Virus record (IMG/VR): IMGVR_UViG_3300031256_000003
Coordinates: 1 to 44,285 of that record
Source: a virus
Reading direction: 5' to 3' (one strand)
DNA length: 44,285 nucleotides
Shown piece after piece: positions 1,690 to 39,509 of the stretch. Made by a program: the position numbers and the translations under genes. The notes under the pieces are model-generated. The model worked only from the letters and a program-made list of their open reading frames with translations, did no database searches and was not told the DNA's origin. The number at the start of each line of letters is the position of its first letter. Position 1 is the stretch's first letter.

Positions 1690-1743
1690 TTAGCACCTCA
1701 AAATTTATCTAGCTAAACCACTACAAACTTGACGGTAACCACG

Positions 1744-3012
1744 ATGCAAGTCGAGTCCATTCCAGTTGCGACCTTGGTCCCATACGCCCGCAATGCGCGA
1801 ACCCACTCCGCCGCGCAGGTGGCGCAGATCGCCGCAAGCATCCGCGAGTTCGGCTTTTGCAACCCGGTGTTGATCGACGAGCATGGTGGCATTATCGCGG
1901 GACACGGCCGCGTGCTGGCTGCGCGCAAGCTAGACCTCGACGCGGTTCCCTGCATCCGCCTTTCGCACCTCAGCGAGATTCAGCGCCGCGCCTACGCGCT
2001 TGCGGACAACAGACTTGCTGAGAATGCAGGATGGGATCTTGAGCAGCTAGGATTGGAGCTGTCTGGGCTGCGCGTCGACGGCTTTGATCTCGACTTGCTG
2101 GGATTCGATGAGGCGGAACTGGACGGACTGCTTGACGGAGACGTGCATAGCAGCGAAGGGTCAAGCGAAGATACAGAGCCGCAGATTGATCACGCCGATG
2201 AATTGCGAAAGAAGTGGGGCGTTGAAGCTGGTCAACTCTGGAAGCTTGGAGAACACCATCTGCTGTGTGGGGATTCGACCATGGCAGATGACGTGGCGCT
2301 GGCGTTGAGCGGAGACACCCCACATTTGATGGTTACAGATCCTCCATATGGGGTGGGATATAACGCAGACTGGCGGAACCATGCCTTTCGATCAGATGGC
2401 TCTCCCATCGCAGGTAGAGCCATCGGAAAAGTCGAGAATGACAACCAGGCGGATTGGCGAGAGGCATGGATTCTGTTTCCTGGAGACGTGGCCTATGTTT
2501 GGCATGCTCCGGGACCTCTGCAAGTTGCAGTGCTTCAAAGTTTGATAGCATGCGACTTTGAGGCTAGGAACCATATTATCTGGGCTAAAAACACGCTTGT
2601 AATAGGTCGCGGACATTACCACCATCAGCACGAGCCGTGTTGGTATGCCGTCAGAAAAGGGGCGACGGCGCACTGGAATGGGGATAGAAAACAAACAACA
2701 TTGTGGGAAATTGACAAGCCGCAAAAGAATGAAACGAGCCATAGCACACAAAAGCCACTTGAATGCATGGCGCGTCCAATCCGAAACAATAGTGCTCCTG
2801 GAGATTCCGTCTATGATCCATTCTCAGGCTCTGGCACGACGATCATTGCCGGAGAAAATCTAGGACGAAAGGTCCGCGCCATCGAAATATCCACGGCCTA
2901 TGTAGCCGTCGCCCTGCAGAGATGGGCCGATCACACCGGTAAAACGCCTAAGCTAGCCTCTCGATCCGCGCATTCAAGCCAACCGAAGAAAACCTCAAAG
3001 GCGAGCGTTTAA
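1744..3012 (+). CDS. ParB-domain / DNA adenine-or-cytosine (N6/N4) methyltransferase fusion
   Basis: 422 residues. The N-terminal part (about 1-90) is a ParB/Srx-type domain with LIDEHGGIIAGHGR (GHGR at 53-56). After an acidic linker comes an amino-methyltransferase with motif IV DPPYGVGY (about 199) and motif I DPFSGSGTT (about 358-366). Catalytic motif before the SAM-binding motif is the beta-class order. Such fusions are frequent in phages and are thought to protect virion DNA from host restriction. The ATG at 1744 follows a weak GGTAA; a TTG at 1729 is the alternative. No target-recognition specificity can be read. It lies immediately upstream of the small terminase. Confidence 0.9.
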   Translation: MQVESIPVATLVPYARNARTHSAAQVAQIAASIREFGFCNPVLIDEHGGIIAGHGRVLAARKLDLDAVPCIRLSHLSEIQRRAYALADNRLAENAGWDLEQLGLELSGLRVDGFDLDLLGFDEAELDGLLDGDVHSSEGSSEDTEPQIDHADELRKKWGVEAGQLWKLGEHHLLCGDSTMADDVALALSGDTPHLMVTDPPYGVGYNADWRNHAFRSDGSPIAGRAIGKVENDNQADWREAWILFPGDVAYVWHAPGPLQVAVLQSLIACDFEARNHIIWAKNTLVIGRGHYHHQHEPCWYAVRKGATAHWNGDRKQTTLWEIDKPQKNETSHSTQKPLECMARPIRNNSAPGDSVYDPFSGSGTTIIAGENLGRKVRAIEISTAYVAVALQRWADHTGKTPKLASRSAHSSQPKKTSKASV

Positions 3013-5767: not shown

Positions 5768-6627
5768 ACTGGAAACGCCGCTGGGACCCATTCATCTGGC
5801 AGGACGGGAAAGACTGCCATTTGCTGTGTCTGGCAACCCGCCATGGCGCGGAAAATCGCGGACAAATCTGGTGGCAGGACGAGAACGTCATTTTGCACGC
5901 CGTCGGTCCGAGCTTCGACGATCTGACCGAGCGCGAGGTGGTCACGCCGCCAAAGGGCTTCATCTGGACCGCGCCGAGCCGGTTTCGTTGCCGCGATCGA
6001 GACTACCTGCTAGCAGGGATCAACTATGACGCAGGGCGGCCGAACCAACGGCTATGGATGGCCCCGCTCGATGATCCCGCCGAGGAGATCGGTCAGCTCC
6101 CGACCGCGGGCCATGAGATGGGCCGCCCGGGGAGCTTCGCCTGGCGCGACGCCAGTGTGATGCGGGTCGGGGAGCGGGAATGGCTGCTATTCGTGACCAC
6201 GGGAGGCTTCCGGTGGGGCGGTGCGCCCAACGTCATCCTCTTCCAGGCCGAGGACCCGCTCGGCAGATGGTGGTCCCGCGGTCCCGTGATCGACCCGACT
6301 CTTGCGGTTCTGTTCGCGGAGCTGGAGCGGCCCCAGATTCATCGCATCGGCGACCGTTGGGTCGCCTGGTGGTCTGTCTGGCCTAACCGCCACTTTTTCC
6401 GCGCGAAAAGCACCGTCCGGACCCATATCGCGATGTCCCCCTTCGATGAGCCGCTATTTTCACGCCCGATTGCACAACTGAACGGTCTCTATGGCCTGCA
6501 GATGCATGCCGATTGCTGGTGCGCCGCCTGGGAATGGACAGACATCGACCAGGCTGAAGGGGATGTTCGCATCTGGCGGGATGATGCCCTGTTGTGGCAC
6601 ATTCGGAAATGTATGGAGTCCGCCTGA
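5764..6627 (+). CDS. Five-bladed beta-propeller, GH43/GH32-like glycosidase-fold protein
   Basis: 287 residues, starting at the ATG overlapping the previous stop. The sequence alternates 'W-D-P-F-I-W ... hydrophobic strand' blocks: RWDPFIWQDGKDCHLLCLATRH at the N-terminus, then FIWTAPSRF, GRPGSFAWRDASVM with REWLLFVTT, and LERPQIHRIGDRWVAWWSVW. Repeated D-x-x-[VI] blades of this kind are typical of GH32/43/62/68 five-bladed propellers. Candidate acidic residues are D8 in the first blade and the D of RDASVM. It may cut or bind host polysaccharide or decorate the virion. A glycosidase-like gene between terminase and portal is unusual. Catalytic activity is not proven. Confidence 0.6.
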   Translation: MNWKRRWDPFIWQDGKDCHLLCLATRHGAENRGQIWWQDENVILHAVGPSFDDLTEREVVTPPKGFIWTAPSRFRCRDRDYLLAGINYDAGRPNQRLWMAPLDDPAEEIGQLPTAGHEMGRPGSFAWRDASVMRVGEREWLLFVTTGGFRWGGAPNVILFQAEDPLGRWWSRGPVIDPTLAVLFAELERPQIHRIGDRWVAWWSVWPNRHFFRAKSTVRTHIAMSPFDEPLFSRPIAQLNGLYGLQMHADCWCAAWEWTDIDQAEGDVRIWRDDALLWHIRKCMESA

Positions 6628-36486: not shown

Positions 36487-36771
36487 TGGCTAATCGCACG
36501 GCTCGGTCGGTTCTCACCTACCCTACGGCTTATCGCACCCAATCAACGGTTCTCACTTGACCCTTGGCTCATCGCACAGCCTGAGCGGTTCTCACTTTAT
36601 GAACGGCTCATCGCATAGCGCTCTCGGTTCTCACCCCTGGTTCGTCTCATCGCACATCTGGGACGGTTCTCACCCGTCGATCGGCTCATCGCACTTCAGT
36701 CACGGTTCTCATAGTTACAACGGCTCATCGCACCCGCGTTACGGTTCTCATGCCTCATGCGGCTCGTCACT
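36487..36771 (-). repeat. TIGR-like array 1: seven 39-nt units with two conserved motifs and two variable spacers
   Basis: Read on the minus strand, two motifs alternate. The 12-nt motif TGCGATGAGCCG (usually preceded by G) occurs eight times, at plus coordinates 36487, 36526, 36565, 36604, 36643, 36682, 36721 and 36760. GTGAGAACCG occurs seven times, at 36508, 36547, 36586, 36625, 36664, 36703 and 36742. The period is exactly 39 nt. Variable segments are always 8 nt on one side and 9 nt on the other, and all seven pairs differ. The end copies are degenerate, and the copy at 36760 overlaps the stop codon of the Nop-like gene. No terminator is seen in the 37 bases beyond the distal end. Confidence 0.93.
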
Positions 36772-37840
36772 ATGCGGCCTTCTCGTCCTCGAACAGGACG
36801 TATCTATAGGGCGGCGTGATGTAATGCGCATGTCCCTTGATCGCAGTCGCAAACGGATTCGGCGGCTTTTGCCCATTCTCGACCTCAAACCATAACTCAT
36901 GCAGATGGCTCAAGAAGAGCTTCACCGTCGCCCGCCTGGCCATCGCATCAATGTGCCCATCTGGAAGCTTGCCCATCGCCAATACGTCCTTTTGCGCGTG
37001 GTTTGGGAACTTCTGTAGCTTTGCCTCCGCCAGCTTGGCCCGGCCCCCGGTGTCGTTTCGTACCACCTCCGCAGCCTTGCGCTGCCGGTAGAACTTCGCG
37101 TAGAACGCATCTTCGCGACCACCTAGCTTCACCATCTGGTCGCCGATCTTCCAGCACATCGTCTTCAGTGGCCGATTGAACGGTATTCTCGCCAAGCTTT
37201 TGATCGCGCTGGTCTTTGTCAGCGCCTTGGTTTCACCGGTCTTGAAATCGGTTGTTGCGTCGCGTAGCACGGTCTCCGGGTCACGTCCGAGAATGATGCT
37301 GAGCTGGCGCACCCGGAATTCCACGTCTCCAGTGCGCTCCTTCCAAAGCTCCTTCAGGGTGTCTGTCGACTCCCACCGCTGGCTCGGATCGAGGCCGGCA
37401 AAGCGCCACCAATGGCCGACCGTTGGAGGAACGGGTCGATAACCCAGATGCGCAAGTATGCCGGCGGACAAGACCGGGCCGATCCCAGGTACGGCCGAGA
37501 ACCACGGCCACATGGGATGAGTTTGCGCGAACGCCTGGAGGAAGCCAGCGGAGTTGGCCTCCATGGTCTCCGCCTGGCGAAGCATGTAGTCGACATATTC
37601 CGTGCTGGCTCCGCTATCGCTTCCGCGTTGCACAGCGCCGCCCTGATTGGCGAGCCGCTTGCGCATTTCCTGCATGGTGTAGTAGAGGTCCACAAGCACA
37701 CGTGCCTCGGCTGCAGTACATTTGCCGGGAGGTCCTTCGAGTGATGCTCCGGCCGCGCGCGCCTGTTCGCCAGCTCGGATTGCCGCGATCGCGTCCTTTG
37801 AAAGCTTGATGATTGGCGTTAAGCTAATAGGGTCTTTCAT
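36770..37840 (-). CDS. Tas-like protein: Nop / IS110 C-terminal (Tnp_20)-like RNA-guided DNA-binding protein
   Basis: 356 residues from the ATG at 37840; the frame opens earlier but that part overlaps another gene. Two helices (about 44-66 and 80-108) lead into the core FSAVPGIGPVLSAGILAHLGY...HWWRFAGLDPSQRW (about 114-156). This is the helix-hairpin-helix 'PGiG...A..l.a..g......F....Gl.P' pattern shared by IS110/IS116/IS902 transposase C-termini and Nop domains. The C-terminal half is helical and basic, ending with HIDAMARRATVKLFLSHLHELW. No DEDD catalytic domain, HNH or RuvC motif is present, so it looks like a stand-alone binding protein. It lies between two TIGR-like arrays, which is the decisive context. 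The ribosome-binding site is poor. Confidence 0.85.
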   Translation of the reverse strand: MKDPISLTPIIKLSKDAIAAIRAGEQARAAGASLEGPPGKCTAAEARVLVDLYYTMQEMRKRLANQGGAVQRGSDSGASTEYVDYMLRQAETMEANSAGFLQAFAQTHPMWPWFSAVPGIGPVLSAGILAHLGYRPVPPTVGHWWRFAGLDPSQRWESTDTLKELWKERTGDVEFRVRQLSIILGRDPETVLRDATTDFKTGETKALTKTSAIKSLARIPFNRPLKTMCWKIGDQMVKLGGREDAFYAKFYRQRKAAEVVRNDTGGRAKLAEAKLQKFPNHAQKDVLAMGKLPDGHIDAMARRATVKLFLSHLHELWFEVENGQKPPNPFATAIKGHAHYITPPYRYVLFEDEKAA

Positions 37841-37890: not shown

Positions 37891-38175
37891 TCAGCCAACT
37901 GCCTTGGCCGGGATCTCTTCCTGCTGCACTGCTTCCAGTTGCGGCGATCCTATCGGCATCATAATGGCCCGGTTCTTGGCTATGTCCGGGGCCTGGATCA
38001 TGAGTTTCTTGAAGCCCACGTTCATCGTGGCCCAAGCCCGCGCCTCCTTTAGGAAGCCCTGCACCTGCCGGTTTTTCTTCTCAATGTCCAAATCATCGCG
38101 CTCATCGATCTGCTCGACCTTATCGATGCAATAATCGACAACGCCATCCACACTGCGCTCAATCTTCTTGCTCAT
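37891..38175 (-). CDS. Small helical protein between array 2 and the Tas-like gene
   Basis: 94 residues, with AGAGGA nine bases upstream of the ATG. It starts MSKKIERSVDGVVDYCIDKVEQIDERDDLDIEKKNRQVQGFLKEARAWATMN, is charged and helical, then IAKNRAIMMPIGSPQLEA. I do not recognise it. Because it lies between array 2 and the Tas-like gene in one transcript, it may be an accessory factor of that system or an ordinary early gene. Confidence 0.66.
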   Translation of the reverse strand: MSKKIERSVDGVVDYCIDKVEQIDERDDLDIEKKNRQVQGFLKEARAWATMNVGFKKLMIQAPDIAKNRAIMMPIGSPQLEAVQQEEIPAKAVG

Positions 38176-38210: not shown

Positions 38211-38216
38211 TGTTAA

Positions 38217-38735
38217 TGAAAATTCGCACGATTGACGCGATTCTCACCTAGTTCAAGGCTCGTCGCATGATCCAATTTGTTCTCACAGTAGCTTCGGCTC
38301 ATCGCACCCCGAGGTCGGTTCTCACAACCCTCACGGCTCGTCGCATTCGCCTGGCGGTTCTCACCGGCTGAACGGCTCATCGCGCACCCACTACGGCTCT
38401 CGCTGGAAGTTCGGCTAGTCTCATTCCGTGCTCGGTTCTCGCGCCACTGATGGATCATCGCACCTTTCGAACAGTTCTCTCTCGCCATTCGGCTCATCGC
38501 ACTTGCGCTTCGGTTCTCACCACTGGGTCGGCTCATCGCACCCACGTTACGGTTCTCACGGCAGCTTCGGCTCATCGCACCATGCGAACGGTTCTCACTC
38601 TCCAGACGGCTCATCGCACCGACTTTACGATTCCCACTATTTTTACGGCTCATCGCATACCGTGCTCGGTTCTCATGCCGCTGATGGCTCATCGCATCGC
38701 GGGGACGGTTCTCACGGGCTTTTCGGCTCATCTAC
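38217..38735 (-). repeat. TIGR-like array 2: thirteen 39-nt units with two conserved motifs and two variable spacers
   Basis: This array has the same two motifs, period and spacer lengths as array 1. On the minus strand TGCGATGAGCCG-type copies start (plus coordinates) at 38256, 38295 and so on every 39 nt to 38724, with a badly degenerate one at 38217. GTGAGAACCG-type copies lie at 38238 to 38706. Copies from 38490 to 38715 are nearly perfect, whereas those from 38217 to 38481 carry several substitutions, so the array decays toward its 3' end as transcribed. The last copy (38724-38735) overlaps the stop of the upstream microprotein. Because 39 is 13 codons, an apparent 172-codon reading frame with a 13-residue repeat runs through it; I regard that as a by-product. 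Confidence 0.93.
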
Positions 38736-38844
38736 CAAAAAAAATAGCCAAATTGATTGCCACGATCGCACCCAGGACTGCGCCCACGATAAGGAGGGCG
38801 AACCAAGCGGGGGGCATGGGCTCACGGAGCGGTTCTCTGCTCAT
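38728..38844 (-). CDS. 38-residue membrane microprotein
   Basis: The ATG at 38844 overlaps the stop of the preceding gene (ATGA), and its own TGA lies inside the first repeat of array 2. After MSREPLREPMPP comes one membrane helix, AWFALLIVGAVLGAIVAINLAIFFG. A run of eight T lies near its 3' end. It is the second gene of the leftward operon. Function unknown. Confidence 0.62.
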   Translation of the reverse strand: MSREPLREPMPPAWFALLIVGAVLGAIVAINLAIFFGR

Positions 38845-39224: not shown

Positions 39225-39509
39225 ATGTCAAAAGCCGCACCACGCGGAAGGCGCAACCCGATCGTGCGGGCCTGCCAGGTGCTGGACTGCACCCAGGCGG
39301 AGCTGGCCCGCCAGCTGCGGTGCACCCGGGCGGCCGTGAGCAAGGCGAAGGGGCTCGGTGAAGTGTCCTGGTCGATGGCGCTGGACCTCGAGCGCATCAC
39401 GGGCGGGAAGATCACCCGCTATGAAGCCTGTCCCAAGACCTACGGTCCTGCGCCGGCCGCGCCTCCGCCGCCCGAGGACGAGAAGCAGGTATCCGCGAAC
39501 GCCGCCTGA
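39225..39509 (+). CDS. Cro/YdaS-like helix-turn-helix regulator
   Basis: 94 residues, with AGGAGA five bases upstream. The HTH is at about residues 19-45 (LDCTQAELARQLRCTRAAVSKAKGLGEVSW), followed by MALDLERITGGKITRYEACP, the typical YdaS/Cro continuation 'A..iE..TgGkvtr...rP'. The Pro-rich tail is variable. It would repress its own promoter and perhaps the leftward one. No CI-type repressor with a dimerisation/cleavage domain exists opposite it. Confidence 0.85.
   Translation: MSKAAPRGRRNPIVRACQVLDCTQAELARQLRCTRAAVSKAKGLGEVSWSMALDLERITGGKITRYEACPKTYGPAPAAPPPPEDEKQVSANAA

What the first reader, a model, noticed from the sequence alone, without database searches (positions are those of the whole stretch)
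38217..38735. Array 2: thirteen dual-motif units with clean and decayed halves
Every unit keeps 12+9+10+8 = 39 nt without a single indel across 13 units, including those with mutated motifs. The segment 38490-38715 is near-perfect while 38217-38481 carries several changes per motif. Length is under stronger constraint than sequence, and the promoter-proximal part is the better preserved, as expected for an array growing or homogenising at one end.
Basis: seen in the sequence. Interest (0 to 1): 0.85.

Follow-up and report, generated by a model that had tools for sequence, protein, structure and literature searches.

The report
Phage TIGR guide-RNA array beside tasA
The 39-base repeats are a TIGR array, a string of 13 two-part guide-RNA units next to a phage gene for the matching RNA-guided DNA-binding protein TasA; the system type was described in 2025, so this is a new member of a known kind, but its relatives offer leads on two open questions: what such guides target and how the arrays change.

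Summary
In detail: 13 units of 39 nt at 38217-38736, strictly in register. On the RNA (minus) strand they read edge repeat GUGCGAUGAGCCG, 8-nt spacer A, loop repeat GUGAGAACCG, 8-nt spacer B. A second array of 7 units lies at 36487-36772. Between them is a minus-strand gene (36770-37840) that passes NCBIfam's TIGR-Tas model (E 2e-45, 155 bits, cutoff 100). Its nearest solved structures are TasH and TasR (VIA-align Z 16.7 and 15.2). It lacks a nuclease domain, so it is TasA. Most of the 80 viral relatives fetched carry analogous arrays, usually starting at the tas stop codon. This is a TIGR-TasA system.

The 'clean versus decayed half' is weak (p 0.013 for the chosen split, 0.25 for any split). 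Relatives show no positional trend; related arrays differ by internal unit duplication, block loss and mosaic exchange rather than growth at one end.

Side result: in the one sequenced isolate with a relative (Acidobacteriaceae KBS 96), one guide matches, 16/16 with no gap, the start of an excisionase/regulator gene in a different prophage of the same genome; a second matches 14/16 about 900 bp away. This suggests guide-directed silencing of rival phages. The window's own targets are unknown.

The parts
38217..38736 (-). [quoted passage not shown]
36487..36772 (-). TIGR array 1: 7 units of 39 nt with the same repeats; begins at the tasA stop codon (TAG 36772-36770)
36770..37840 (-). tasA: 356-aa Nop-domain TIGR-associated protein without a nuclease domain
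   Evidence: NCBIfam NF052498.1 155.5 bits, cutoff 100; profile hits PDB TasR 9mty E 9.5e-14 and TasH E 4e-4; fold Z 16.7 TasH, 15.2 TasR, 10.7 IS621
37891..38175 (-). 94-aa ORF between array 2 and tasA, function unknown, probably in the same transcript
   Evidence: no family hit; no relative found in viral contigs
38728..38844 (-). 38-aa ORF with a hydrophobic stretch; its stop codon TGA lies inside the truncated first edge repeat of array 2
   Evidence: read from sequence
38213..38731 (-). 172-aa open frame across array 2 (MSRxxxENRxxxA repeats); judged a chance frame, not a gene
   Evidence: P(open) about 0.08 in this frame for random spacers; the same frame has stops in array 1; no curated cutoff reached

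Best explanation
Array 2 is a dual-repeat TIGR array (tandem interspaced guide RNA) of a TasA-type TIGR-Tas system in a lambda-like phage, probably temperate. Shown by sequence: two alternating repeats with fixed-length random spacers, truncated edge repeats at both ends, a second array directly after the tas stop codon, and an adjacent Nop-domain Tas protein without a nuclease. Inferred from the biochemistry of relatives (PMC12045711): the leftward transcript is cut once per edge repeat into 13 tigRNAs from array 2 and 7 from array 1; each is held by a TasA dimer through the 'UG' (box D) and 'CCG' (box C) ends of both repeats; spacers A and B pair with opposite strands of one 16-18 bp DNA site, unwinding and bending it. 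With no nuclease, TasA would block transcription or replication at the site. Most likely use: silencing rival phages or prophages; supported only by a relative (KBS 96), not shown for this phage (I put that use at about 0.55; the confidence below is for the identity as a TIGR-TasA array).
For: NCBIfam TIGR_Tas equivalog far above cutoff. The profile finds solved TasR (E 9.5e-14) and TasH (4e-4), then IS621 (0.13). Fold: TasH Z 16.7 over 225 residues, TasR 15.2, IS621 10.7, next unrelated 8.6. 227 viral relatives in a scan; most of the 80 fetched carry 35-39 nt dual-repeat arrays, usually starting at the tas stop codon with a truncated edge repeat. The last base of box C is the same in edge and loop in 61 of 61 arrays, and the box D pair is identical (GA/GA in 59, GT/GT in 2). 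Related arrays share isolated spacer pairs that span the loop repeat (whole tigRNA) in 11 of 13 cases (my count). Mechanism: KBS 96 tigRNA 2 matches 16/16, gap 0 (expected 0.004 in the genome), in an excisionase/regulator gene of another prophage; tigRNA 5 matches 14/16 in the same prophage.
Against: No expression data. No target found for the window's own spacers: in sequences held, matches in the expected geometry do not exceed control geometries; scans for the duplicated window guide and for one conserved guide of a relative gave no interpretable hits. Host unknown. The unit is 39 nt, not the 36 nt of characterised tigRNAs. Several repeats of array 2 carry changes in conserved positions, so some units may be inactive. 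The KBS 96 match involves 1 of 6 guides exactly, in a TasA only 33% identical to this one.
Confidence: 0.95

Rival explanations
1. Array 2 encodes a repetitive protein (172-aa minus-strand ORF with 13-residue repeats, or a plus-strand GSSHxxxGSHxxx protein).
For: The minus frame is open from an ATG at the array edge to the far end, and 39 is a multiple of 3. Pfam gave a sub-threshold Lysostaphin_N match (E 3.9e-11, 43 bits, cutoff 60) to the repeats.
Against: The same frame in array 1 has three stops; the plus frame has two stops in array 2. Random spacers between these repeats leave the minus frame open in 8% of cases and each plus frame in 13%. The preference for A/T at the first spacer base is silent in the minus frame.
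Confidence: 0.02
2. DNA-level binding-site array: iterons, operators or a partition site bound directly by a phage protein.
For: Direct repeats at fixed spacing in intergenic DNA; a ParB-like domain is encoded at 1729-3012.
Against: Two different alternating repeats that co-vary at their ends, arrays tied to the tas gene across many phages, and spacers conserved between relatives as pairs fit guide RNAs, not iterons. The ParB-like gene is fused to a methyltransferase and lies far away.
Confidence: 0.02
3. A TIGR array that is partly dead: the 38217-38481 half no longer yields working tigRNAs.
For: 20 changes in 13 repeats there against 6 in 12 in the other half; some hit box C (GAUCCA, GAGCCU, AACUG, AACAA) or box D.
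Against: Register is kept perfectly; breakpoint-free test p 0.25; relatives' arrays also carry scattered changes without order.
Confidence: 0.15

Closest known systems
TIGR-Tas systems, dual-repeat type with TasA (Faure et al. 2025, PMC12045711)
   Same: Nop-domain protein without nuclease, arrays upstream and downstream of tas, alternating edge and loop repeats starting UG and ending CCR, 8-9 nt spacers, truncated edge repeats at array ends, phage host.
   Different: Unit of 39 nt instead of the usual 36 (three extra bases, UGA, in the edge repeat); box C ends in CCG rather than CCA; an extra 94-aa gene lies between array 2 and tasA.
TIGR TasR and TasH (PDB 9mty, 9w04, 21kl)
   Same: Same Nop fold over about 190-225 residues and same array logic.
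   Different: No RuvC or HNH domain in the window protein.
IS110-family transposases and bridge RNA (IS621, PDB 8wt6)
   Same: Homologous RNA-binding Nop-like domain (Z 10.7; weak Pfam and NCBIfam scores).
   Different: No DEDD catalytic domain, no bridge RNA, arrays of guides instead.
CRISPR arrays
   Same: Repeats separated by variable spacers and used as guides.
   Different: Two alternating short repeats, 8-9 nt split spacers, no adaptation genes seen.

Membership tests
TIGR-Tas (dual-repeat) | Adjacent Tas protein with a Nop domain | tested here: met
   NF052498.1 155.5 bits, cutoff 100; profile and fold matches to TasR/TasH
TIGR-Tas (dual-repeat) | Two distinct alternating 8-12 nt repeats separated by spacers of about 9 nt | tested here: met
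   12+9+9+9 when repeats start at UG (13+8+10+8 by conserved blocks), in register over 13 and 7 units
[quoted passage not shown]
   array 2 starts AUGAGCCG and ends GUGCGA; relatives start likewise at the tas stop
[quoted passage not shown]
   61 of 61 arrays share the last box C base; box D pair identical in all 61
TIGR-Tas (dual-repeat) | Predicted rho-independent terminator after the array | tested here: inconclusive
   one weak terminator-like site at 38240-38224 on the minus strand, overlapping the last repeat; number of sites in the region not clearly above shuffles
TIGR-Tas (dual-repeat) | Processing into discrete tigRNAs bound by Tas | not testable with these tools
   needs RNA sequencing
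TIGR-Tas (dual-repeat) | Tandem-spacer recognition of opposite DNA strands | tested here: inconclusive
   no target known for the window; relative KBS 96 has one exact 16-bp match in the expected geometry
TasA subtype | No HNH or RuvC domain fused to Nop | tested here: met
   only about 45 residues before the Nop part (TasR has about 115); no nuclease family hit
IS110 transposase | N-terminal DEDD RuvC-like catalytic domain | tested here: not met
   no such domain and no room for one; Pfam IS110 C-terminal domain only sub-threshold, NCBIfam IS110 20 bits against a cutoff of 140
CRISPR array | single 25-36 nt repeat with spacers of similar size | tested here: not met
   repeats 10 and 13 nt, alternating, spacers 8 nt

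The most novel reading that the evidence does not exclude
Phage TasA arrays are sets of guides for shutting down competing phages and prophages, for example by binding the start of their excisionase/regulator genes, and they evolve by duplicating, losing and swapping whole guide units inside the array rather than by adding new ones at one end. The duplicated guide in this window (units 38685 and 38451) would then mark a favoured target.
Probability: 0.5. Interest if true: 0.75.

Novelty: new member of a known kind. Interest (0 to 1): 0.5.

Why it matters
TIGR-Tas systems were described in 2025 with their natural targets and the way their arrays arise left open. This locus adds a member with an unusual 39-nt unit. 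The viral relatives collected with it give an alignment-based view of how arrays change, and one sequenced host offers a candidate natural target inside a rival prophage, which can be tested directly.

Tried and rejected
Coding array: chance-open frame, contradicted by array 1. Rfam: no match at gathering thresholds. Growth at the 38.7-kb end: no positional trend in relatives. Targets among held viral loci: exact and 1-mismatch hits in the expected geometry (233) do not exceed three control geometries (207-231). Viral-contig scans for the window's duplicated guide (120 stretches, scan stopped at its limit) and for a guide conserved in four relatives (13 hits) were uninformative. The 94-aa neighbour has no relative or family (a PADLOC hit at E 0.03 is probably chance). 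A genome-contig scan found one isolate with a relative, KBS 96; among 396 genomes of its phylum only KBS 96 passed the TIGR-Tas cutoff, the many weaker hits having IS110-like lengths and copy numbers. Other KBS 96 guides: tigRNAs 1 and 4 had no exact match (gap 0-2), tigRNAs 3, 5 and 6 none within 1 mismatch at gap 0. The closest relative, L009, shares no spacers with the window beyond chance (4 at 7/8, 2.4 expected). In the null, the single exact hit is explained by L076, which is the same KBS 96 locus as L096. I first noted that a TAG stop codon ends just before array 2; on rereading, the upstream 38-aa ORF ends in a TGA inside the truncated repeat.

Full report
WHAT IS THERE. The window is a 44,285-bp IMG/VR record of a lambda-like phage: terminase, portal, head protease, tail tape measure and J-like fibre on the plus strand; RecT and an exonuclease on the minus strand, and a repressor-like gene at 39225-39509 on the plus strand. 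At 38217-38736 there are 13 units of 39 nt without an indel. Read on the minus strand, the direction of the neighbouring genes, each unit is edge repeat GUGCGAUGAGCCG, 8 random bases, loop repeat GUGAGAACCG, 8 random bases. Seven more units lie at 36487-36772. The exact unit occurs in no other sequence of the viral or genome collections.

THE GENE BETWEEN THE ARRAYS. The minus-strand gene 36770-37840 was first flagged only as 'transposase' (PHROG 4285). A profile of it and six relatives finds, among solved structures, TasR (9mty, E 9.5e-14), TasH (E 4e-4) and, weakly, the IS621 transposase. An AlphaFold model (mean pLDDT 71) matches TasH at Z 16.7 over 225 residues, TasR at 15.2 and IS621 at 10.7; the next unrelated fold is at 8.6. 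Foldseek also ranks TasR and TasH above everything else. NCBIfam's TIGR-Tas model scores 155.5 bits against a cutoff of 100. Only about 45 residues precede the Nop part, so there is no room for the RuvC or HNH domain of TasR or TasH: this is TasA. (NCBIfam's family name says 'endonuclease'; no nuclease domain is present here.)

WHAT THE ARRAY IS. The paper that defined TIGR-Tas (PMC12045711) describes two alternating 8-12 nt repeats separated by about 9-nt spacers, arrays upstream and downstream of tas, a 5'-truncated edge repeat at the start and a 3'-truncated one at the end, repeats that start 'UG' (box D) and end 'CCA' (box C) in TasR arrays, and boxes that co-vary between edge and loop repeats. 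The window meets these: array 2 begins with AUGAGCCG and ends with GUGCGA; array 1 begins at the tas stop codon; both repeats start GUG and end CCG. A scan with the Tas alignment found 227 viral relatives, of which 80 were fetched. Most carry 35-39 nt dual-repeat arrays, usually starting right at the tas stop codon. Across 61 arrays the last box C base is always the same in edge and loop, and the box D pair is identical (GA/GA in 59, GT/GT in 2). The typical relative has GAGCGAGCCR N8 GAGAGAACCR N8 (36 nt); the window carries three extra bases in the edge repeat.

Fixed length with drifting sequence is real, and is what a fixed Tas dimer holding two spacers would demand. Off-register steps are 2.9% over 1813 half-steps in the arrays analysed and 0 of 33 in the window. 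The closest relative, L009, varies by 1-2 nt, seemingly in the edge repeat, while its spacers stay mostly 8 nt. The clean/decayed halves are only weakly supported (p 0.013 for the chosen split, 0.25 for any split), and relatives show no trend along the array. Where related phages can be compared, arrays differ by an internal one-unit tandem duplication (L031 against L034), by block loss, and by blocks found in a different order. Within-array copies of spacer pairs at 13 or more of 16 bases number 23 overlapping pairs against 0.1-0.5 expected, including units 38685 and 38451 of this window. By my count, isolated shared pairs span the loop repeat, that is, form a whole tigRNA, in 11 of 13 distinct cases. 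The unit of retention therefore appears to be the guide.

HOW IT PROBABLY WORKS. From the paper's cleavage rule (cut 5' to the base paired with the fifth spacer base, 8-nt 3' overhangs) I infer that the target's top strand reads spacer A, then 0-2 nt, then the reverse complement of spacer B. TasA has no nuclease, so blocking is the likely effect. I found no target for the window's own guides. Only one genome-collection isolate carries a relative: Acidobacteriaceae KBS 96 (the same locus is IMG/VR record L076). Its array has six guides. Guide 2 (TAAAAGCA/TTCGATTC) matches perfectly, gap 0, at scaffold position 6329962, expected 0.004 times in that genome. The site lies 25-40 nt inside an 86-aa HTH_17 gene of the excisionase/regulator family (phrog_66), in an element with an integrase, capsid and head protease: a different prophage, far from the tas locus. 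Guide 5 matches 14/16 in the same element about 900 bp away, both mismatches at the outer end of spacer A. In a 14.1-kb scan of that prophage, 16 of 1419 spacer pairs from the collected arrays reached 2 or fewer mismatches at gap 0, and the one exact hit is accounted for by the same KBS 96 locus. The match was found after testing several guides, so its weight is moderate: allowing for six guides, about 0.03-0.05 for an exact hit anywhere, less for its place in a prophage regulator gene.

VERDICT. A bona fide TIGR-TasA system and a new member of a known kind, with a 39-nt unit as a minor variation. The identity is close to certain; the function in this phage is inferred.

Noticed in passing
L230 positions 1501-1516 (KBS 96 scaffold 1, 6329962-6329977) and L096 10819-10854: Candidate natural target of a TasA guide: exact 16-bp tandem-spacer match at the start of an excisionase/regulator gene of another prophage in the same genome; a second guide matches 14/16 about 900 bp away.
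   Followed up: partly
L031 and L034, about 6141-6212: Two closely related phage arrays that differ by one internal tandem duplication of a 36-nt unit.
   Followed up: yes
L059, L064, L065, L066 (guide GGAGTATC/AGCACGCG): One guide is conserved in four related phages and duplicated in one of them, while neighbouring units differ; suggests a conserved target.
   Followed up: partly
37891-38175 (-): 94-aa gene between array 2 and tasA with no relatives; possible TasA partner.
   Followed up: partly
36721-36741 and 38529-38549; 38646-38666 and 38412-38432: Near-identical spacers between array 1 and array 2 (7/8) and within array 2 (both spacers of a unit).
   Followed up: yes
1729-3012 (+): ParB-like nuclease fused to a DNA methyltransferase; not in an operon with tasA, so probably unrelated to the tasParB association described for TIGR.
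   Followed up: no
window spacers in both arrays: First spacer base is never G in the window's spacers (36 A/T, 6 C of 42) and the base before box D is almost always a purine; cause unknown.
   Followed up: partly
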